Below, one piece after another: positions 8,806 to 17,717 of a stretch of DNA of 64,000 bases. Position numbers and translations under genes: made by a program. The stretch comes from Firmicutes bacterium HGW-Firmicutes-7 (GTDB taxonomy: Bacteria; Bacillota; Clostridia; Lachnospirales; Vallitaleaceae), in assembly GCA_002841375.1 (NCBI GenBank), contig PGZO01000001.1, positions 1 through 64,000 on the forward strand, read 5' to 3'. Below the pieces are notes generated by a model. The model saw only the letters and a list, made by a program, of their open reading frames with translations. It had not been told where the DNA came from and made no database searches. Numbering within the stretch: the first letter of the stretch is position 1; every line of letters begins with the position of its first letter.

Positions 8806-9972
8806 ATGGTCACCAAAACATATGCTCAGATCAATGAGAAAATTAAAAATGGGGTAGCGGTTGTCGTAACAGCTGAGGAAGTACTGGATATAATCGAAGA
8901 AAAAGGAATCGAAGGGGCTACCGAGTACGTAGATGTGGTCACAACAGCTACATTTGGACCGATGTGTTCAAGCGGTGCTTTTTTAAACTTGGGACATTCG
9001 GATCCGGCGATTCGTATGGAAAAAGTGAAGCTAAACAATGTGAATGCCTATGCCGGTCTTGCAGCGGTGGACGCCTATATCGGAGCAACGCAGGAGTCTG
9101 ATGACCGTGGCTATGAATATGGCGGTGCTCATGTCATCTGTGATTTAATTGATGGTAAGCAGGTACATTTACAGGCAACGGGAAAGGGAACGGATTGTTA
9201 CCCGAGAAAGTCCATCGATACGTACATAACAAAGGATAGCATCAACGAAGCGTACATTTACAATCCAAGAAACTGCTATCAAAATTATAATGCAGCCATC
9301 AATACTTCTAGCAAAAGGCTCTTTACCTATATGGGAATTTTAAACCCCAACAGTAGTGTTGTCACTTATTCCACATCTGGTCAATTAAGTCCGCTACTTA
9401 ATGATCCCTTGTACAGAACGATTGGAATCGGCACAAGGATATTCATTGGTGGTGGTGTCGGTTATGTTGCTTGGAAAGGTACGCAGTTTAAGTCAGGTGT
9501 AGAAAGGGATGAAAAGGATTTGCCCCAGGTTCCTGCGGGTACGTTGGCTTTGGTTGGAGATCTGAAGCAGATGAGTACAAAATACATCCAGCCAGCTGTC
9601 TTTGAGCGCTATGGGACGTCGATGTTTGTGGGTATCGGCATTCCGATACCGATCCTAGATGAGAATATAATGCGTCATGTAGCTGTAAAAGACGAGGATA
9701 TTTTCACAAACGTTGTCGATTACAGTGTTTTTGAAGGACCAAAACCGGTTCTAGCACGAGTCAGTTACAAGGATTTGAGAAGCGGAGAAATAGAAGTTCA
9801 AGGTAAGCGCGTGCGGACAGCACCTCTGTCAAGTTTACACAAGGCGCGGGAAATCGCTGGTGAGTTAAAGGCTTGGATTGAAAAAGGTGAATTTTTCATT
9901 CAAGAACCGGTGGATCAATTCCAGACGGATTGTACTTTGAACGGACTTAAAATTGTTAAGAAGGAGGGCTAA
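8806..9972 (+). CDS. Homocysteine biosynthesis protein (DUF39/HcyBio family)
   Basis: The 388-residue protein matches the DUF39 family (COG1900): early ATFGPMCSSGAFLNLGH with a conserved Cys, then GGAHVICDLIDGKQVHLQATGKGTDCYP in shorter blocks, and a GIGTRIFIGGGVGYVAWKGTQ block. In methanogens and some anaerobes this family, with the NIL-ferredoxin partner encoded next, is required to make homocysteine from aspartate semialdehyde and sulfide. The ATG is preceded by aaaggagaaag. Control by a SAM riboswitch supports the sulfur amino acid role here. There is no C-terminal CBS pair, unlike some archaeal members. Confidence 0.92.
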   Translation: MVTKTYAQINEKIKNGVAVVVTAEEVLDIIEEKGIEGATEYVDVVTTATFGPMCSSGAFLNLGHSDPAIRMEKVKLNNVNAYAGLAAVDAYIGATQESDDRGYEYGGAHVICDLIDGKQVHLQATGKGTDCYPRKSIDTYITKDSINEAYIYNPRNCYQNYNAAINTSSKRLFTYMGILNPNSSVVTYSTSGQLSPLLNDPLYRTIGIGTRIFIGGGVGYVAWKGTQFKSGVERDEKDLPQVPAGTLALVGDLKQMSTKYIQPAVFERYGTSMFVGIGIPIPILDENIMRHVAVKDEDIFTNVVDYSVFEGPKPVLARVSYKDLRSGEIEVQGKRVRTAPLSSLHKAREIAGELKAWIEKGEFFIQEPVDQFQTDCTLNGLKIVKKEG

Positions 9973-9976
9973 GGAA

Positions 9977-10378
9977 TTGAAACAAAAGTTGTTATTAACA
10001 TTTCCGGCAGAAGCAACAGGACATACGATTACTTATGAATTAATTACGAAATACCAATTAGAGGTCAATATTCTACGAGCCTCCATTGATTTTAACGCCC
10101 AGGGATTTCTTCTGATTGAAGTCATAGGGGACATAAGCAGCCGCAAGGAAGCATTGGATTTTTTACTTGAAAACAACGTGGAGGTACGTGAAATCAATGC
10201 GGCGATTCTTATTAATGAAGAGAAGTGTATCAATTGCGGAGCTTGTACGGCAGCTTGTACGGTGGGTGCGCTTTACATGGATAATAACTGGTGCTTAAGT
10301 TTTGATAATGAAAAATGTTTAGACTGTAAAACTTGTGTTGTGGCTTGTCCAAAACGAGCAATTGAGGCGGTTTTATAA
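9977..10378 (+). CDS. NIL-domain ferredoxin, homocysteine biosynthesis partner
   Basis: The first half is a NIL ligand-binding domain; the second half has two [4Fe-4S] motifs, CINCGACTAAC and CLDCKTCVVAC. I place the start at the TTG at 9977 because aaggagg at 9961 is 9 bases upstream; the frame is open further upstream only inside the preceding gene. It likely delivers electrons or sulfur to the DUF39 enzyme, as proposed for the archaeal pair. The gene sits between the DUF39 and UPF0280 genes with almost no spacing. Confidence 0.9.
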   Translation: MKQKLLLTFPAEATGHTITYELITKYQLEVNILRASIDFNAQGFLLIEVIGDISSRKEALDFLLENNVEVREINAAILINEEKCINCGACTAACTVGALYMDNNWCLSFDNEKCLDCKTCVVACPKRAIEAVL

Positions 10379-10380
10379 TC

Positions 10381-11139
10381 ATGGTTTATGAAGAACGTTT
10401 TTATCGTGACTATCACCTTAACCGTGATTTATTTCGCTTCCGGGTTGCCCAGGGGGAGTCGGATCTCCTCATTCTGGCTTCCGAAGACATCGAAAAAAAA
10501 GCTTATGTCGCACTAAAGGAATGCAGGGCCATTCTTAAAGATTATGGCTCTGCTCATCCGAATTTCTTCAAATCCCTTGTGCCGCTTGAATGCCACGAGT
10601 GTGCTCCGAAGCTCATTAAGCATATGCATCAAGCGAGCTTAAAAGCTGGAGTCGGTCCGATGGCAACCGTTGCCGGTGCGGTTGCTCAATATATCGGTGA
10701 AATGCTCCCTTTTTGCAAGGAATTAATCATCGAAAATGGTGGTGATCTTTATATGCGATCTACAGCAGAGCGCCACATTGCAATCTATGCCGGCACTTCG
10801 CCTTTTTCAAATAAGCTGGCCATTAAAATCAAAGGGGAACAGACACCGTTGGGCATATGTACCTCTGCCGGTACCTTCGGTCACTCTTTTAGTTTTGGAA
10901 AGGTTGATGCTGCGATGATCCTATCAAAAGACACTTTTTTAGCGGATGCAGTGGCGACAGCTGTCGGGAACCGAATACAAAACGAAGAGTCAATTCAAGA
11001 GGCAATCGATTATGCAAGGCAGATAGAGGGCATTTTGGGCATTCTAATCATATATCGGGATAAACTGGGTGTCTGGGGAGACATCGAGATAGAACCGTTA
11101 CGCTTAAATATAACCACTTCTAATCTTTTTAAAGGCTAG
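10381..11139 (+). CDS. UPF0280 family protein (ApbE-like fold)
   Basis: The 252-residue protein has the UPF0280 pattern (GPMATVAGAVAQYIGE, ENGGDLYM, GICTSAGTFGHSFSFGKVDAA), which resembles the flavin transferase ApbE in its GMATVAGA and SAGTFGHS segments. Its biochemical function is unknown. It starts two bases after the ferredoxin stop and completes a three-gene SAM-regulated operon, a grouping that recurs in genomes and points to homocysteine formation. Confidence 0.88.
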   Translation: MVYEERFYRDYHLNRDLFRFRVAQGESDLLILASEDIEKKAYVALKECRAILKDYGSAHPNFFKSLVPLECHECAPKLIKHMHQASLKAGVGPMATVAGAVAQYIGEMLPFCKELIIENGGDLYMRSTAERHIAIYAGTSPFSNKLAIKIKGEQTPLGICTSAGTFGHSFSFGKVDAAMILSKDTFLADAVATAVGNRIQNEESIQEAIDYARQIEGILGILIIYRDKLGVWGDIEIEPLRLNITTSNLFKG

Positions 11140-11154: not shown

Positions 11155-11347
11155 TGCCCTGTTGATATCTACTATTCCTATTATATCGGCCCCAGGTCCA
11201 TATATTATGCCAATTGCACCTTAATTTACATTTAGACATCGCTATCATTTCATGTTAACATAGCAATAGAGATTCAAAACAAAATAAAAGATAAAATATA
11301 GTAATAAAATGGAAACAACAATATTATATATGATTGCAGGTGATATT

Positions 11348-12319
11348 ATGAAAAAATATATATTTATATTACTGCTTATGCTAACGATAGTAAGCTCAAT
11401 GGTAGCCGGAACGCTTGCAATATATACTACTTCAATTGATAACCTGGCAGACGGTAGTGTTGTAGCCAAGGAATTCATTTTTGTAGGGGAGGGTACGGAT
11501 ACTTTTCAGCATGGGGTGAAAATAGCACCTTTGGAAACCGTGCAATGGCAATTTAAAATAAAAAACTATGAGAATCATGTTATAACAGAAACAGATTTAT
11601 ACTATAAAATTATTTTCAACATTAATGCTTCGTCAAATAAAAATGCGATAGAACCTTTAATTGTTACAGTAAAAGATTTAAATGGAAATATACGCAATAG
11701 TGTTTCAGGGGTAGGCACACTTGACGTACTTGATTCGTTCTCGCTTTCGGAAAACGGTCAGGAAAAAGATTATATCGTTGAAATCTATTGGCCGGATGAG
11801 GGAAATGCGGATACTGATTATGCAGGTGGGAACTATGGAACATCTGTTAATGTTGAGGCCATAGCATCACAAATTCCTTTTGGCGATACCGACCCGGTTG
11901 TAGGAAATCCTGATGCGCATAATGAAGTCAGTGTTCGGTATGAAACAAGTAGTCCTTGGCAAAACGGACAAAGCGGTGTCTATGAGTTTGAATATAAAGT
12001 AATGATTACCAATAACTCTGACACAACTATTGAAGACTGGAACATTGCATTTACACTTCCTTTAGACAAAATAATTCGTGCATGGAGTAACGCAAATATG
12101 GTCACAGGATCGTCTGACGGATATTACAAATTTGTCAATCCAAACTATAATAATACGGCAACAGACGATATTCTGCCGGGACAGAGTGTATCTTTCAGAG
12201 GACCGGCCTTTGGGCATGGAACTGAAGCCATAGAAAACATCAAGGTAGGAGGAAGTAATATAAATTCAAATAGTAATGTGGATTTGACTTATGAATTTGG
12301 CAAAAATTCATTAAATTGA
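11348..12319 (+). CDS. TasA-like SipW-dependent secreted protein with CBM2-like domain
   Basis: The signal region MKKYIFILLLMLTIVSS leads into VAGTLAIYTT, the form seen in proteins processed by SipW-type signal peptidase. Residues about 25-175 (from this start) are a TasA/camelysin-like beta domain. From about residue 200 (VRYETSSPWQNGQSG, then IEDWNIAFTLP, IRAWSNANM, DDILPGQSVSFRG) the sequence resembles a family 2 cellulose-binding module, with Trp residues placed as in that family. The start at 11348 follows aggtg; the longer frame adds no recognisable signal. It is the first gene of a locus that includes its probable peptidase at 13441. It may be a matrix or surface protein binding polysaccharide. 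Confidence 0.8.
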   Translation: MKKYIFILLLMLTIVSSMVAGTLAIYTTSIDNLADGSVVAKEFIFVGEGTDTFQHGVKIAPLETVQWQFKIKNYENHVITETDLYYKIIFNINASSNKNAIEPLIVTVKDLNGNIRNSVSGVGTLDVLDSFSLSENGQEKDYIVEIYWPDEGNADTDYAGGNYGTSVNVEAIASQIPFGDTDPVVGNPDAHNEVSVRYETSSPWQNGQSGVYEFEYKVMITNNSDTTIEDWNIAFTLPLDKIIRAWSNANMVTGSSDGYYKFVNPNYNNTATDDILPGQSVSFRGPAFGHGTEAIENIKVGGSNINSNSNVDLTYEFGKNSLN

Positions 12320-12578: not shown

Positions 12579-13109
12579 ATGAAAAAAACACTTGGAATTT
12601 TCACATTCATTTTATTGTTAACAGTTTCAGTTACTGCCGGAACGCTTGCAATATATACTACTAATTTAGATGATTTGGCAGAAGCTAGTGTTGTGGCTAA
12701 AGAATTCGTACTGACAAAAGGCGGAACAGATACCTTCACAAAAAATGTAAAGATTGCTCCGGGAGAAAAAATAGAATGGCAATTTAGTGTAAAGAACTTT
12801 GAGGGCTCTATTGTCAGTGAAACAGCAATGGATTTGGACTTTAATGTAGGTGTTGTTGCGGTTGATGGTAAAGATGTCATAAATCCGCTTGTAATTACTA
12901 TTAAAAATTCAGATGGTGACATAGTAGGCACCGCTGCATCAAATGGAACGATTCTATTTGATGATGAATTTGCTTTGACTGCCGACGGACAGGAGAAAAT
13001 ATATACCGTATCCGTCAATTGGACAAGCAATGATGAAGTTGATATTAATTATGCAGGTAAAGATTATGGAACGGCTGTTAACGTATTTGTAACAGGCGTA
13101 CAAAAATAG
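12579..13109 (+). CDS. TasA-like SipW-dependent secreted protein
   Basis: The 176-residue protein begins MKKTLGIFTFILLLTVSV and TAGTLAIYTTNLDDLAEAS, a SipW-type signal, followed by one TasA/camelysin-like domain ending with YGTAVNVFVTGVQK. It is a close paralogue of the N-terminal domain encoded at 11348, sharing SVVAKEF, GTDTF, VKIAP and YAGxxYGT blocks, but it lacks the binding-module extension. aggaggat precedes the start. It ends just before a strong terminator, so the three secreted proteins form one transcript. A role as a major fibre or surface subunit is inferred from the TasA resemblance. Confidence 0.85.
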   Translation: MKKTLGIFTFILLLTVSVTAGTLAIYTTNLDDLAEASVVAKEFVLTKGGTDTFTKNVKIAPGEKIEWQFSVKNFEGSIVSETAMDLDFNVGVVAVDGKDVINPLVITIKNSDGDIVGTAASNGTILFDDEFALTADGQEKIYTVSVNWTSNDEVDINYAGKDYGTAVNVFVTGVQK

Positions 13110-13440: not shown

Positions 13441-13959
13441 TTGCAAACAAAATACACGACAAAGGAGCAAATTGAAGAAATGCGGCAGGAGATACTTCTT
13501 GAGAAGCAGAAAATGTCGCAAGGGAGAAAAGAGAACAGACAAATTATAGGATTTACATTGAAAATGGGAGGGAAAGTTATATTTTGGACTGTAATATTTT
13601 TGCTTCTCTTGACAGTGGTCTCTGTTAATAAGGCTAAAAACAGGGGGGAGATTCCGGGGATTTTAGGTTTTCATCTTTTTGTGGTTGAATCAGGTAGTAT
13701 GGAGCCTACGCTTAATATCGGAGCGGTGATTTTATGCCGAAAGCCGAAAGAACCTAATAATCTTATAGTAAATGATATCGTTACTTTCAAGGATTTATCA
13801 GGGCATATTATTACCCATAGAATTATAGAGGTTGTTGTAGATGAGAGAATAACCGCATACCGAACAAAGGGAGATAACCCTAAAAATTCTGCCGATCGGG
13901 AGCTTCTTACATCCGATAGGGTAGTAGCAGTATTTATAGGTAAAATCCCTCTGACATAG
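13441..13959 (+). CDS. sipW: Signal peptidase I, SipW (ER-type)
   Basis: The 172-residue protein has a charged, coiled N-terminal stretch (about 1-33), a membrane segment (about 38-60) and the S26 peptidase domain. SGSMEP places nucleophile Ser86; His126 (THRI) and Asp145 (TKGDNP) stand at the same spacings (+40 and +19) as Ser, His and Asp of Bacillus subtilis SipW, and His in place of Lys defines the ER-type. It should cleave the signal peptides of the TasA-like proteins encoded upstream. Start: TTG preceded by gaaaggtgg. Starts the second half of the locus, followed at once by the ABC-like genes. Confidence 0.9.
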   Translation: MQTKYTTKEQIEEMRQEILLEKQKMSQGRKENRQIIGFTLKMGGKVIFWTVIFLLLLTVVSVNKAKNRGEIPGILGFHLFVVESGSMEPTLNIGAVILCRKPKEPNNLIVNDIVTFKDLSGHIITHRIIEVVVDERITAYRTKGDNPKNSADRELLTSDRVVAVFIGKIPLT

Positions 13960-13986
13960 AGGATAGAACACTATGGAGAGATGAAT

Positions 13987-14985
13987 ATGGGAGACACTAT
14001 CAAAAATCATAAGAAAAAGAATCAAGTTAAAAACATTGTATCCATAAAAAATCTTTCATCTAGAGAATATTTTTTATATGATAATAAAGAACGGAGACAA
14101 GTACTTAAGAATATCAATTTATTTATGAATAAAGAAGAGACGTGGGGAATAATGGGTGAGTCTGCTTTTGAAATCAAATTACTATTGGAAATAATGGCAA
14201 ATATAAGGGCATACGATACAGGTAGATGTATTCTGGTAGAGAGAGGGATGCTTAGACATAAAAGAATCATACTAAAACATGTATTTTATATTGGAAATTC
14301 AGATATGATTTATGAGAATATGAATGTACTGGAGTTTCTTGTGTTTGCGATAATTAAGTTTAAAGCTGACAAGGTGGAGCTGCAAGAACAGATTTTTGAA
14401 TTCCTTATTGATATGGGATTAGGACATATATCCCTTACATCAAATAAAATGCTGACAAAAGAGGAAAAGGCAGTCATTACCCTAATTGCTGCGGCCCATT
14501 CAGACAGCGTAATGATCGTGTTCAATTTTCCTGATTATAGATTTGATGAAGTCCTTGTTGATGCGATTGAAAAAATAGCTGACTTTATGAGAAAGAGGGG
14601 GAAATGCCTCATAATTGGGACACAAAATGGTCATTTAATTGATAAAACATGTAGTCATATAAGCGTTTTGGCAGACGGAAATATAATATATCAAGGAACA
14701 GTTGAAAACTTTTGCTTAAGTTTTGATAAAGTTATGGTGATTATAAGAGATGCTAATATATATAGCATAATGGATAAGCTTATCGAGATATTTCCTGAGT
14801 ATAAAATATCCATAAAAAGCGACAGTCTGCTAATTAACAGATTGAATGAAGAGATATATGATCCCCTTTCTATATATAAAAAAATCATAGAAATGGGTAT
14901 TGTTCCAGATTATATGGAAATAAATCCTAAAACGGTTTCCAATGCATATGAGGAGATCATTGTAGAGCATGATTTACAAAAATAG
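13987..14985 (+). CDS. Degenerate ABC ATPase-like protein (catalytic motifs lost)
   Basis: The overall layout is that of an ABC2-type ATPase with a C-terminal extension, including hISVLADGNIIYQGT, but the key motifs are replaced. Counting from the ATG at 13981: Walker A reads GIMGESAFE (56-64, no Gly-Lys-Ser/Thr), the LSGGQ signature reads LTKEE (158-162), Walker B reads VFNFP (180-184, Asp and Glu both missing), and the switch His is Gln in GTQNGH. ATP hydrolysis is therefore unlikely. Start chosen at 13987 because ggagag is only properly spaced from that ATG; 13981 is possible. It overlaps the permease-peptidase fusion gene by 17 bases, which suggests a complex. Confidence 0.75.
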   Translation: MGDTIKNHKKKNQVKNIVSIKNLSSREYFLYDNKERRQVLKNINLFMNKEETWGIMGESAFEIKLLLEIMANIRAYDTGRCILVERGMLRHKRIILKHVFYIGNSDMIYENMNVLEFLVFAIIKFKADKVELQEQIFEFLIDMGLGHISLTSNKMLTKEEKAVITLIAAAHSDSVMIVFNFPDYRFDEVLVDAIEKIADFMRKRGKCLIIGTQNGHLIDKTCSHISVLADGNIIYQGTVENFCLSFDKVMVIIRDANIYSIMDKLIEIFPEYKISIKSDSLLINRLNEEIYDPLSIYKKIIEMGIVPDYMEINPKTVSNAYEEIIVEHDLQK

Positions 14986-16369
14986 TTATTTTAAAAAGGA
15001 ACTTCGTCAGATTTATACGGAAAATAAAATTGCTTCTAATAGAAAAATAGCTTTTGCACTTTTTATGGGCCTTATTTCATTTGCTATTTATTTTCTGTTG
15101 CAAACACTTCAGAATAGTGTAATCGCTGATGTTGTTCCGGAAATTATGCAACCCAGTTTTTTTTCAACACTGTATATATATATCCATTTATCTTTTTTTT
15201 TAAATACAATTTATTTTATTGTATATTACGACTATCTTTTTTTCTCAGAAATAAGGAAAAATTCATGGTACCTTTTGGTACAGATGGGCTATAATCCGGT
15301 AACGATGATTTTCTCCAAGTTTTTTGCACTCTTGTATTCTGTTATATTAACATATACAGTTGGTTTTGCTTTTGTAATATTGCTTACTTTTTTCCTCAAA
15401 TACAATTTTATACTCGCTTATATTCCTTCATTATATTTTGCCGGGCTTACGGATCTCATATTTATCAGTACATTAGCCATGACAATTTCTCTCTATGTAA
15501 AGACCATTCTTAATGCCTGGTACTTAACCTTCTTTTTTGAGGTGGCCATTATAGCTTTAAAGATTATGTCAAAATATTATACGGTGCTATCTAATCGTGT
15601 GATTATGCAGAATATATATAATCTATATAATATTAGTCGCTCATGGTTTATGCCGGCGGCTGGGATTATAATTATTGCTTCCGGTTTGGTTTGCATGATA
15701 AGGGCCAAAAATGTGGCAAAGTATTATAATCTGCATGTAAACAATATTACTTCTTTAAATGCAAAAGTAGTCTATATAGATTCAAAAAAGGGAAGATGGA
15801 GGTCTGTCTATGGTAATGAAGAAATTAAGGGGCATAGTAAAATCATTCATACGGTAATTTCCGTAGGCATTATTATTATTATCTGCTGCGCACTGCTTAT
15901 TAATATCTTTATTATTATAATCAATGCATCTACCCCCGGCAACGAAGTTGCCATCCGAGGCGTCATACCTTTTATTTTCAGATCAGACACTATGGAACCT
16001 TCTATCATGTTAAATGATCTTGTCTATTTTCAAAAAATTGATAACCTTTTTGAGGTTGAGGTAGGAGAAATCATTCTATTTAAAGAAAATAATATTGTTT
16101 ATGCAGAAAGAGTCATTGAAAGGGAAAAGGATATATTTGCAGTGGATATTGATAATTATCCACCTATGTCTCAACCCGGGGCTATGTTGAAAACTGTACA
16201 AAGAGAAAATATTATTGGCATATTCAGTGGAAGAAATCGCTGGTTAGGAGCATTGATACTTTTTTCTAATACCATTTTCGGCAGGCTTTTATTTTTATTG
16301 GTGCCTACCGTGTTGCTTTTTTATTATAAGCAGATTATAGGATTGTACCAGAGGAATAATAAATATTAG
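14969..16369 (+). CDS. ABC-2 permease-like protein fused to degenerate signal peptidase domain
   Basis: Residues about 25-245 contain six hydrophobic segments like an ABC-2 permease. A cytoplasmic linker and a further membrane helix (about 295-318) lead to a signal peptidase I-like domain (325-430) and a final hydrophobic pair. The nucleophile box is SDTMEP (339-344) with Thr341 instead of Ser, and the box aligned with SipW THRIIE reads AERVIE, with Glu380 instead of His. Asp395 in DIDNYP may match the third residue. The peptidase domain therefore looks inactive. With the dead ATPase gene overlapping upstream and active SipW before it, a role as scaffold or substrate-holding partner for SipW is plausible. 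I do not know a named family for this fusion. Confidence 0.75.
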   Translation: MIYKNSYFKKELRQIYTENKIASNRKIAFALFMGLISFAIYFLLQTLQNSVIADVVPEIMQPSFFSTLYIYIHLSFFLNTIYFIVYYDYLFFSEIRKNSWYLLVQMGYNPVTMIFSKFFALLYSVILTYTVGFAFVILLTFFLKYNFILAYIPSLYFAGLTDLIFISTLAMTISLYVKTILNAWYLTFFFEVAIIALKIMSKYYTVLSNRVIMQNIYNLYNISRSWFMPAAGIIIIASGLVCMIRAKNVAKYYNLHVNNITSLNAKVVYIDSKKGRWRSVYGNEEIKGHSKIIHTVISVGIIIIICCALLINIFIIIINASTPGNEVAIRGVIPFIFRSDTMEPSIMLNDLVYFQKIDNLFEVEVGEIILFKENNIVYAERVIEREKDIFAVDIDNYPPMSQPGAMLKTVQRENIIGIFSGRNRWLGALILFSNTIFGRLLFLLVPTVLLFYYKQIIGLYQRNNKY

Positions 16370-16622: not shown

Positions 16623-17090
16623 TTAGGCAGCTACACGAATTATAGTTAATGAAGCACCAGCGCCTCCATTAAGTAATGTTGCTAGCCCTATTAATCCAAA
16701 TAATTCAAGTGTAATTGTTGAATTTGCTGGTAAAGTTACGATAACATTATTAGAAAAAGATGAGCGCGTTAAAGTAGCTGTAAGTGTCGATGCTGTATTA
16801 GGCGAGCCATTTATTAATAGCCTAGTTCCTACTGCTAGTGCAGCTGAAAGATTTACATGATACGAAATATAATACCTACCAGAGGGTGATATCGTAAAAA
16901 CAGTATTTGCAACATTTGGGGTAATATCTGAAGATAGATTTTGACTATCGGGCAAAGATATTGAAGTACCACCAAGAACAACAGCTATTATTTGACCAGC
17001 TGTACTTGCTGCAAAACCCGAAGTATTTGTTAAATTAGAGCTGGTCGAATTAATGATTCCGCCACAACAATTGCAACAATGGTTATTCAT
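16623..17090 (-). CDS. BclA C-terminal-like (TNF/C1q fold) spore-surface protein
   Basis: The 155-residue protein starts MNNHCCNCCGG and continues with a Ser/Thr/Asn-rich stretch, then GGTSISLPDSQ and FTISPSGRYYISYHVNL, the pattern of the BclA C-terminal domain found in exosporium glycoproteins; there is no collagen-like GXT repeat here. The start ATG at 17090 has ggaagg about 13 bases upstream; a GTG at 17117 would add nine residues. It faces a divergent small Cys-rich protein gene at 17367. A spore-surface role is inferred from the family. Confidence 0.7.
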   Translation of the reverse strand: MNNHCCNCCGGIINSTSSNLTNTSGFAASTAGQIIAVVLGGTSISLPDSQNLSSDITPNVANTVFTISPSGRYYISYHVNLSAALAVGTRLLINGSPNTASTLTATLTRSSFSNNVIVTLPANSTITLELFGLIGLATLLNGGAGASLTIIRVAA

Positions 17091-17366
17091 TATAGGATCA
17101 TTCCTTCCGGTATACACAATGACTTGAATTTATGAAAAGGCCACACATCAACGGTTGGTGTTAGCCCGCAGGTTTTGATTGTTTTGAAAGTGCCCTCTAC
17201 TCCATAATATGCAATAAGGGAAAAAATGATCTGGCGTGCACATATTATTTTATATTTGTTGGTACAAGCCAAAATTGCTTATCATATAATAAATATATGA
17301 GTTTATGTAACGCAATTCATATTCTTGGGAAGTGTACAAACCATCTTTTATTAAGAGGTGATTATA

Positions 17367-17717
17367 ATGAGTAAGTGTTGTTCAATAGTAGAAATTAGAG
17401 GTAACTGTCAATGTTATGGTTTTGAAAGTACATCCTTTTCAATCAATAGCACAGTTGCTTCTTCAACGACAGTGATATGGTCAGCCGATGGGATACCAGG
17501 GCTTAATATTGGAACTGTGATCATAAATGCTGTATTAATTGAAGCAAATGTAAATATGAATTTAATTATTAATGGTCAAACTCAGATTGCATTAACACAA
17601 GGTCAAACTTATTCTGAAAGTGTAAAATCGCTTTCATCTGTTGAAATCGAAACCAATGGTGCTGTTGGACTCAATCAAGTTACAGCTTCTATAAGTGTTA
17701 GTAAATATCTATATTAA
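17367..17717 (+). CDS. Small Cys-rich beta protein, Ena/DUF3992-like
   Basis: The 116-residue protein begins MSKCCSIVEIRGNCQCYG and continues as an all-beta sequence (TTVIWSADGIPG, NLIINGQTQIAL, SVEIETNGAVG). An N-terminal Cys-rich connector followed by one jelly-roll domain is the plan of the Ena endospore appendage subunits (DUF3992). I see similar length and layout, not a verified match. Start at 17367 follows gaggtg. The divergent BclA-like gene strengthens a spore-appendage idea, since appendage tips in Bacillus carry BclA-type domains. Confidence 0.45.
   Translation: MSKCCSIVEIRGNCQCYGFESTSFSINSTVASSTTVIWSADGIPGLNIGTVIINAVLIEANVNMNLIINGQTQIALTQGQTYSESVKSLSSVEIETNGAVGLNQVTASISVSKYLY

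What the first reader, a model, noticed from the sequence alone, without database searches (positions are those of the whole stretch)
14969..16369. ABC-2 permease fused to a signal peptidase domain that lost its catalytic residues
One protein carries six permease-like helices and then a SipW-like peptidase domain. The nucleophile box is SDTMEP (Thr341 for Ser) and the SipW THRI box reads AERV (Glu380 for His), while Asp395 may remain. It overlaps the dead ATPase gene and follows an active SipW gene. A scaffold or chaperone that holds SipW substrates, or a divergent regulator of SipW, would be a new function. The catalytic losses are seen; the role is inferred.
Basis: partly seen in the sequence, partly recalled or inferred. 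Interest (0 to 1): 0.88.

Follow-up and report, generated by a model that had tools for sequence, protein, structure and literature searches.

The report
Dead transporter-peptidase partner of SipW
A conserved bacterial gene set pairs a signal peptidase that looks active but is shortened with a dead transporter whose membrane protein is fused to a dead signal peptidase, probably a new membrane machine for processing and assembling surface-fibre proteins.

Summary
The 466-aa protein at 14969-16369 is an ABC-2-like (NosY-like) six-helix permease fused to a SipW-like domain. Thr341 replaces the nucleophile Ser, Glu380 the catalytic His; Asp395 is kept. I found 23 distinct versions. In 23 of 23 the gene directly follows an intact-looking SipW gene and a dead ABC ATPase gene. 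None has His or Lys at the base position. In 23 of 23 ATPases the Walker A Lys, Walker B Asp-Glu and H-loop His are missing.

In 23 of 23 it lacks the C-terminal membrane helix that 23 of 24 other clostridial SipWs carry, and it has a conserved N-terminal motif found in 0 of those 24. The pseudo-peptidase keeps the C-terminal helix in 23 of 23. All three genes occur in the same 6 of 391 genomes, with wide score gaps.

Best reading: a non-catalytic membrane partner of SipW that holds TasA-like fibre subunits for cleavage and assembly, working like Streptococcus SipA, or even part of an obligate multi-subunit signal peptidase. Anatomy and co-inheritance are shown; binding and function are inferred.

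The parts
14969..15733 (+). ABC-2-like (NosY-like) six-helix transmembrane domain, residues 1-255 of the fusion protein
   Evidence: AlphaFold model m6d2e5fe0dcb4 and fold search: NosDFY chain taken to be NosY, Z 13.7; ten-residue pLDDT means 62-92 except residues 1-20 (43)
15734..15826 (+). poorly conserved linker, predicted cytosolic, residues 256-286
   Evidence: mean pairwise identity 0.25 for residues 256-290; low pLDDT; topology inferred
15827..16336 (+). pseudo-signal-peptidase: N-terminal helix, extracytoplasmic beta domain, C-terminal helix, residues 287-456
   Evidence: NF046067 E 2.9e-10, below its cut-off; hhalign to 24 SipWs probability 99.3, E 3e-20; Foldseek human signal peptidase complex C, SpsB, SipA, LexA probability 1.00 but E 0.02-0.1
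15989..15991 (+). codon of Thr341, at the position of the nucleophile Ser
   Evidence: Thr in 21 of 23 distinct loci, Ser in 2 (L013, L051)
16106..16108 (+). codon of Glu380, at the position of the catalytic His
   Evidence: Glu in 21 of 23, Gly in L050, Ala in L051, never His or Lys
16151..16153 (+). codon of Asp395, at the position of the GD-box Asp
   Evidence: Asp in 22 of 23 (L020 has Thr, with Asp two residues before)
13981..14985 (+). dead ABC ATPase (pseudo-NBD) with an extra C-terminal region; overlaps the fusion gene by 17 nt
   Evidence: NBD fold, model pLDDT 83, MetN and NosDFY ATPase chains among the best matches, E 5.8e-14 to 3e-13; motifs lost in 23 of 23
13441..13959 (+). SipW, S26 peptidase with catalytic boxes, an N-terminal extension and no C-terminal helix
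   Evidence: NF046067 E 2.7e-28 matching positions 5-127 of 189; TIGR02228 74.7 bits, above its cut-off; tail analysis
12579..13109 (+). TasA/camelysin-like secreted protein (TasA2), likely SipW substrate
   Evidence: hhalign of 16 relatives to 20 camelysin-family proteins probability 95.4, E 1.7e-8, 161 columns
11309..12319 (+). TasA2-related secreted protein with a C-terminal CBM_2-like domain (TasA1), likely SipW substrate
   Evidence: CBM_2 E 3.4e-8, above cut-off; 44% identical to TasA2, E 1.6e-48

Best explanation
The gene encodes the membrane subunit of a non-catalytic partner complex for SipW. Shown: it combines an ABC-2-type membrane domain with a signal-peptidase domain that has lost its catalytic Ser and His; it is encoded with a dead ABC ATPase; and both are co-inherited with a variant SipW that lacks the usual C-terminal membrane helix and carries a conserved N-terminal motif. 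Inferred: the dead ATPase and the permease half assemble as in an ABC transporter but do not pump. The SipW N-terminal extension docks on the cytosolic side. The pseudo-peptidase pairs with SipW outside the membrane and supplies the missing C-terminal helix. Its conserved former active-site region holds the signal peptide or donor-strand end of TasA-like fibre subunits, so that cleavage and fibre assembly are coupled. It would do for these clostridial fibres what TapA, CapP or SipA do elsewhere.
For: SipW, dead ATPase and fusion are contiguous on one strand in 23 of 23 distinct loci. In 391 genomes of the class each has a top group of the same six genomes with a wide gap: fusion weakest of six 1.3e-124, next place elsewhere 1.4e-13; cassette SipW 2.3e-52, next 6.2e-30; dead ATPase 2.2e-81, next 5.9e-19. 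Cassette SipW: one helix only, 85-91 residues from SxSM to the end, and the N-terminal motif in 23 of 23; the fusion keeps a C-terminal helix in 23 of 23. Of 24 other SipWs 23 have the C-terminal helix and 0 of 24 the motif. Pseudo-peptidase domains and cassette SipWs each form one supported group, 100/100 and 96/90. dN/dS of the pseudo-peptidase is 0.04-0.22 in the 12 closest pairs, lower than that of SipW in 11 of them; the pairs are not independent. The box around Thr341 (mean majority frequency 0.77), the box around Asp395 (0.83) and the C-terminal helix (0.82) are its best-conserved stretches. SipA, a dead signal peptidase with a conserved cleft, is essential for pilus polymerisation (PMC4049620, abstract and part 1 of the discussion).
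Against: No physical interaction, complex model or phenotype was tested. C. perfringens secretes and polymerises BsaA, a TasA-like protein, with a sipW-bsaABCRSD operon that lists no such partner (PMC7395162, passages), so SipW-type processing does not generally need one. The substrates match TasA/camelysin only by profile-profile comparison. In G811 no TasA-like gene lies in the 9.5 kb read; in G849 it lies about 4.4 kb upstream with other genes between; in G153 and G120 it lies downstream. The box around Glu380 itself is only moderately conserved (0.64). The SipA authors could not detect peptide binding. The tree does not place the pseudo-peptidase as sister to the cassette SipW. The model of the peptidase domain has modest confidence. 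A Lys or Arg is kept in 23 of 23 ATPases one residue after the Walker A Lys position, so loss of nucleotide contact is likely but not proven.
Confidence: 0.55

Rival explanations
1. A SipA-like assembly chaperone that acts after cleavage: the dead peptidase domain holds mature TasA-like subunits or their N-terminal donor strand and feeds the growing fibre, without being part of SipW.
For: SipA precedent; TasA polymerises by an N-terminal donor strand and TapA is suggested to supply the first strand (PMC9674648, passages). I noticed no TapA or CapP gene in the cassettes, but did not search for them by profile.
Against: It does not explain why SipW in the same cassette lacks its C-terminal helix and has an N-terminal motif in 23 of 23, or why the three genes co-occur one to one in the class survey.
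Confidence: 0.2
2. A sensor or regulator: the dead transporter/peptidase senses substrate or precursor load and signals to matrix gene expression, as reported for B. subtilis SipW.
For: SipW has been reported to influence matrix gene expression (PMC13082335, passage citing Terra 2012). ABC-like sensor modules are known (recalled).
Against: By eye no kinase or regulator gene is a constant neighbour in the stretches read; neighbours were not searched by profile.
Confidence: 0.1
3. Still a peptidase with a non-standard Thr/Glu/Asp site.
For: A hydroxyl residue is kept at the nucleophile position in 23 of 23, Glu at the base position in 21 of 23, and Asp in 22 of 23. Ser-Glu-Asp triads exist in sedolisins (recalled).
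Against: Gly or Ala replaces Glu in L050 and L051. No Lys or His is present at the position in 23 of 23. A SipW with catalytic boxes is encoded beside it in 23 of 23.
Confidence: 0.08
4. A working ABC exporter that moves a lipid or peptide, with the peptidase domain as passenger.
For: Both halves resemble the NosDFY transporter. A Lys or Arg lies one residue after the Walker A Lys position in 23 of 23.
Against: At the Walker A Lys 20 have Ile, 2 Met, 1 Ser; at the Walker B Asp 22 have Asn and 1 Glu, followed by Phe, Leu or Val in place of the catalytic Glu; no H-loop His in 23 of 23.
Confidence: 0.05

Closest known systems
Streptococcus pyogenes SipA (PMC4049620; PDB 4n31)
   Same: Signal-peptidase fold without catalytic residues, conserved peptide cleft, encoded with surface-fibre genes; 4n31 is among the Foldseek matches, probability 1.00, E 0.07
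   Different: SipA is a stand-alone protein homologous with E. coli SPase-I, with Asp/Gly at the Ser/Lys positions and sortase-built pili; here the domain is SipW-type (Ser/His), fused to an ABC-2-like domain, with a dead ATPase and a SipW beside it
SipW (ER/archaeal-type signal peptidase, NF046067, TIGR02228)
   Same: Same domain with both membrane helices, Asp kept
   Different: Ser and His replaced; fused to a permease
NosDFY-type ABC complex (NosY permease, NosF ATPase)
   Same: Fold of both halves; ABC machinery that serves an extracytoplasmic protein partner (recalled)
   Different: The ATPase is dead; the extracytoplasmic part is a fused pseudo-peptidase
TapA (B. subtilis) and CapP (B. 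cereus) fibre assembly factors
   Same: Accessory factors for TasA-family fibres (PMC9674648 passages, PMC13082335 abstract and passages)
   Different: Extracellular accessory proteins; no ABC or peptidase domain (recalled)
Eukaryotic signal peptidase complex (SEC11 with non-catalytic subunits)
   Same: A catalytic S26B subunit working with non-catalytic membrane partners (recalled); 7p2q, human complex C, is the best-ranked peptidase match
   Different: Partner subunits are not homologous to the ABC half (recalled); the link is an analogy only

Membership tests
Type I signal peptidase, SipW/ER type (S26B) | S26 fold with flanking membrane helix or helices | tested here: met
   hhalign probability 99.3, E 3e-20; NF046067 E 2.9e-10, but 40 bits against its cut-off of 190; Foldseek 7p2q/SpsB probability 1.00, E 0.02-0.03
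Type I signal peptidase, SipW/ER type (S26B) | nucleophile Ser in SxSM | tested here: not met
   Thr341 here; Thr in 21 of 23, Ser in 2 of 23
Type I signal peptidase, SipW/ER type (S26B) | catalytic His (or Lys in the bacterial type) | tested here: not met
   Glu380 here; Glu 21, Gly 1, Ala 1 of 23
Type I signal peptidase, SipW/ER type (S26B) | Asp of the GD box | tested here: met
   Asp395 here; 22 of 23
ABC-2-type transporter (TMD + NBD) | six-helix ABC-2 membrane domain | tested here: met
   NosDFY chain Z 13.7 over 218 residues, other listed ABC chains at Z 11.6-13.4; caution about helical bundles in the tool's own note; no Pfam hit
ABC-2-type transporter (TMD + NBD) | ATP-binding and hydrolysis motifs in the NBD | tested here: not met
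   Walker A Lys, Walker B Asp-Glu, LSGG signature and H-loop His missing in 23 of 23; register set by alignment of seven of them with three intact ATPases
SipA-like pseudo-signal-peptidase | catalytic residues absent, cleft region conserved | tested here: inconclusive
   residues absent in the window protein; boxes around Thr341 and Asp395 well conserved, box around Glu380 moderately; the cleft itself was not modelled with confidence
SipA-like pseudo-signal-peptidase | same sequence family as SipA | tested here: inconclusive
   4n31 matched by fold only, E 0.07; phmmer against PDB sequences gave no match
SipA-like pseudo-signal-peptidase | required for fibre assembly | not testable with these tools
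   needs a deletion mutant
TasA/camelysin family (PF12389), for the neighbours | match to the family profile over its cut-off | tested here: not met
   no hit for the two window proteins or at their place in the own-genome search; 3 of 16 TasA2 relatives match, best E 0.0048
TasA/camelysin family (PF12389), for the neighbours | homology by profile-profile comparison over most of the length | tested here: met
   TasA2 set: probability 95.4, E 1.7e-8, 161 columns with 20 proteins; subset of 8: 95.2; subset of 4: 77.2 over 84 columns only

The most novel reading that the evidence does not exclude
An obligate multi-subunit bacterial signal peptidase. A shortened SipW is the catalytic subunit, a pseudo-peptidase fused to an ABC-2 domain supplies the missing C-terminal helix and a second substrate cleft, and a dead ABC ATPase completes the membrane platform. 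It would be a bacterial counterpart, by analogy, of the eukaryotic signal peptidase complex, built from two enzymes that were both turned into structural parts and dedicated to fibre subunits.
Probability: 0.35. Interest if true: 0.88.

Novelty: new variant of a known kind. Interest (0 to 1): 0.76.

Why it matters
Bacterial signal peptidases are usually described as single-protein enzymes (recalled). Here a SipW without its second membrane helix is tied, in 23 of 23 loci, to a transporter and a peptidase that have both lost catalysis, in a gene set conserved down to about 30% identity. If the partner is needed, this would be a multi-subunit signal peptidase in bacteria and a route to TasA-like fibre assembly different from TapA and CapP. 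It would also be an unusual case of a whole ABC transporter reused as a scaffold. The prediction is directly testable by deletion and co-purification in culturable Desulfosporosinus, or by moving the cassette into a laboratory Bacillus subtilis strain.

Tried and rejected
Decay or pseudogene: rejected. The fusion has no internal stop in the 23 distinct loci, and dN/dS of the pseudo-peptidase is 0.04-0.22 in the 12 closest pairs (Nei-Gojobori, several pairs with dS above 1, pairs mostly within Desulfosporosinus and not independent).

Sequencing or assembly chimera: rejected, because the same fusion occurs in 22 further distinct loci.

An intact Ser/His elsewhere in the domain: rejected by the profile alignments.

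Sequence search of PDB with the fusion protein: no match at E up to 5. Search of plasmids: no match. Pfam: no family.

TasA identity by curated profiles: failed for the window proteins. PDB search with the TasA2 profile found only an S-layer fragment at E 0.0077, best single stretch 0.13, which I do not use. In one search the script may have picked a wrong-strand ORF for one or two of the 20 camelysin loci (probability 91.5); one search repeats it with strands taken (95.4).

Descent of the pseudo-peptidase from the neighbouring SipW by duplication: not supported by the tree, where it sits on a long branch outside; the tree is unrooted and short, so not excluded either.

Complex prediction of SipW with the fusion and the ATPase was not possible with the monomer tool.

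Results against or limiting my reading: the 24 other SipWs are the best-scoring non-cassette loci that one search returned (82 of 391 genomes had a match), not a random sample, and one of them (L081) also lacks a C-terminal helix. Start codons are by script, so N-terminal lengths are rough: the first helix begins at residue 33-59 in the 23 cassette SipWs and at residue 32 or earlier in 23 of the 24 others. Helices were called by a hydropathy window only. Close relatives lack the cassette: (96 genomes) only the own genome and G035 matched, the latter only at residues 327-394, so none of the other 21 same-genus or same-family genomes (G001-G021) has a match at E 0.001. The distribution is patchy and may reflect horizontal transfer or loss. 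L020 is the most divergent member (Thr at the Asp395 position, shorter ATPase).

Literature: the listings, judged by titles and abstract starts, showed no paper describing an ABC permease fused to a signal peptidase beside SipW. Most subscription papers and bioRxiv preprints are not in that library.
Full report
What is there. The ORF at 14969-16369 encodes 466 residues. No Pfam family matches it at E up to 1, and the only NCBIfam match is SipW, NF046067, at residues 301-456, E 2.9e-10 and well below the curated cut-off. An AlphaFold model from 17 aligned sequences has mean pLDDT 69. Its first 250 residues match ABC-2 membrane domains, best a NosDFY chain taken to be NosY, Z 13.7, rmsd 3.6, 218 residues. 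Its C-terminal part gives Foldseek matches to the human signal peptidase complex C, SpsB, SipA and LexA at probability 1.00 but with E-values of only 0.02 to 0.1. The firmer proof of the peptidase domain is profile-profile: probability 99.3, E 3e-20 over 155 columns against 24 other clostridial SipWs, and 96.1, E 3e-9 over 123 columns against the cassette SipWs.

The fusion is a conserved gene. One pattern-based scan of 84,980 species genomes found 16 loci (L005-L020), 29-69% identical in the best segment. Surveys of 391 class genomes and 398 phylum genomes added six more distinct ones: G358, G153, G120, G811, G849, G486. With the window that makes 23. L048 (G176) duplicates L013 and G378 is L005. 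In 23 of 23 the order SipW, ATPase-like gene, fusion gene is contiguous on one strand. In the 16 loci measured the last two genes overlap by 11-53 nt, and by 17 nt in the window. TasA-like genes lie in the stretch read in 22 of 23 loci: G811 shows none in 9.5 kb, L014 (a 5-kb contig) has one on the opposite strand downstream, G153 and G120 have them downstream, and in G849 other genes lie between.

Catalysis is lost as a rule, not by accident. At the nucleophile position 21 of 23 have Thr and 2 have Ser (L013, L051). At the base position 21 have Glu, L050 has Gly and L051 has Ala; none has His or Lys. Asp is kept in 22 of 23. The ATPase-like protein folds as a nucleotide-binding domain (pLDDT 83, MetN and NosDFY ATPase chains among the best matches). 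Seven of the 23 were aligned with three intact ATPases from fetched loci to set the register. Counted over all 23 in that register, the Walker A Lys is Ile in 20, Met in 2 and Ser in 1. A Lys or Arg sits one residue later in 23 of 23, where Ser/Thr would be. The Walker B Asp is Asn in 22 and Glu in 1, and the catalytic Glu after it is Phe, Leu or Val in 23. No H-loop His remains. The conserved Lys/Arg means that some nucleotide contact cannot be ruled out from sequence alone.

Constraint. In the 12 closest pairs dN/dS of the pseudo-peptidase is 0.04-0.22, lower than that of SipW in 11 of 12 (the pairs overlap). Mean pairwise identity of the pseudo-peptidase is 0.56, equal to SipW. The mean frequency of the majority residue is 0.77 around Thr341 (330-356), 0.75 at 366-375, 0.64 around Glu380 (376-384), 0.83 around Asp395 (391-400), 0.66 at 401-422 and 0.82 in the C-terminal helix, against 0.47 at 357-365, 0.38 at 385-390 and 0.45 in the linker.

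NF046067 matches the window SipW only over positions 5-127 of 189, starting at residue 44. In 23 of 23 cassettes SipW has a single membrane helix, ends 85-91 residues after the start of SxSM, and carries an N-terminal motif of the type TTxxQIxxMR. Of 24 non-cassette SipWs returned, 23 have a C-terminal helix and none has the motif. These 24 are the best-scoring non-cassette loci, not a random sample. The fusion protein has the C-terminal helix in 23 of 23. So the protein that looks active lacks the helix and the inactive one keeps it.

Co-inheritance. In 391 class genomes the fusion, the variant SipW and the dead ATPase each have a top group of exactly the same six genomes: G000, G120, G153, G176, G358 and G378. 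The next best places are about 111 powers of ten weaker for the fusion, 22 for SipW and 62 for the ATPase. The 18 further places hit by the fusion profile all start at profile position 230 or later, so the permease half was not seen without the peptidase half at that threshold. The tree of 70 domains puts pseudo-peptidases in one group (100/100) and cassette SipWs in another (96/90), with several matching subgroups. The cassette is missing from the 21 other genomes of the same genus and family that were searched, so its spread is patchy.

Substrates. The two secreted proteins upstream are probable SipW substrates. TasA2 and its relatives align with 20 camelysin/TasA-family proteins at probability 95.4 over 161 columns; for subsets of 8 and 4 the values are 95.2 and 77.2 (one search gave 91.5 with less careful picks). 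Pfam's camelysin profile does not detect the window proteins and catches 3 of 16 relatives weakly. TasA1 is 44% identical to TasA2 and ends in a CBM_2-like domain.

How it most likely works. The precedent is S. pyogenes SipA: a signal-peptidase fold without the Ser/Lys pair, with a conserved cleft, essential for pilus polymerisation (PMC4049620; I saw the abstract and part 1 of the discussion). For TasA fibres, assembly by N-terminal donor strands with TapA as a likely starter is described in PMC9674648 (passages), and CapP in B. cereus in PMC13082335 (abstract and passages). C. perfringens processes BsaA with a SipW and no listed partner of this kind (PMC7395162, passages). I therefore propose that the pseudo-transporter and pseudo-peptidase form a non-catalytic partner of this SipW lineage, holding fibre subunits and completing the membrane part that SipW lost. 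The anatomy, loss of motifs and co-inheritance are shown. Contact, holding and coupling are inferred. The boldest form is an obligate multi-subunit signal peptidase.

Novelty. The listings, judged by titles and abstract starts, showed no paper describing an ABC permease fused to a signal peptidase beside SipW. The library lacks most subscription papers. I rate it a new variant of a known kind, because a dead signal peptidase as a fibre-assembly factor is known, while its union with a dead ABC transporter and a shortened SipW was not found in those searches. The recount changed details of the Walker A description and the TasA comparison; it did not require a change of odds.

Noticed in passing
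L009:3418-3744, L015:1083-1850, L018:2886-3458, L019:2946-3590: Some cassettes carry an extra small protein between TasA1 and TasA2 with a similar N-terminal signal-like stretch but no BLAST match to the five window proteins at E 1e-3; could be a TapA-like accessory factor.
   Followed up: no
window 11309-12319: TasA1 has a C-terminal CBM_2-like domain above Pfam's cut-off, so the fibre may bind polysaccharide.
   Followed up: no
L082 (G811) and L083 (G849), beside SipW: Three genes that look like a spore-germination (gerA-type) operon (recalled from sequence appearance, not searched) lie next to SipW in the opposite orientation; in G849 they separate it from the TasA-like genes.
   Followed up: no
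window 14164-14178 (ATPase residues 62-66) and relatives: A Lys or Arg is kept in 23 of 23 dead ATPases one residue after the lost Walker A Lys, inside a conserved stretch that replaces the P-loop; its role is unknown.
   Followed up: partly
window 16623-17117 (-) and 17358-17717 (+): Two short Ser/Thr/Asn-rich proteins, the first resembling spore-surface BclA-type C-terminal domains by eye (recalled, not searched).
   Followed up: no
window 8806-11139: Three-gene set that by eye resembles a DUF39-type protein, a small ferredoxin-like protein and a UPF0280-like protein (recalled, not searched).
   Followed up: no
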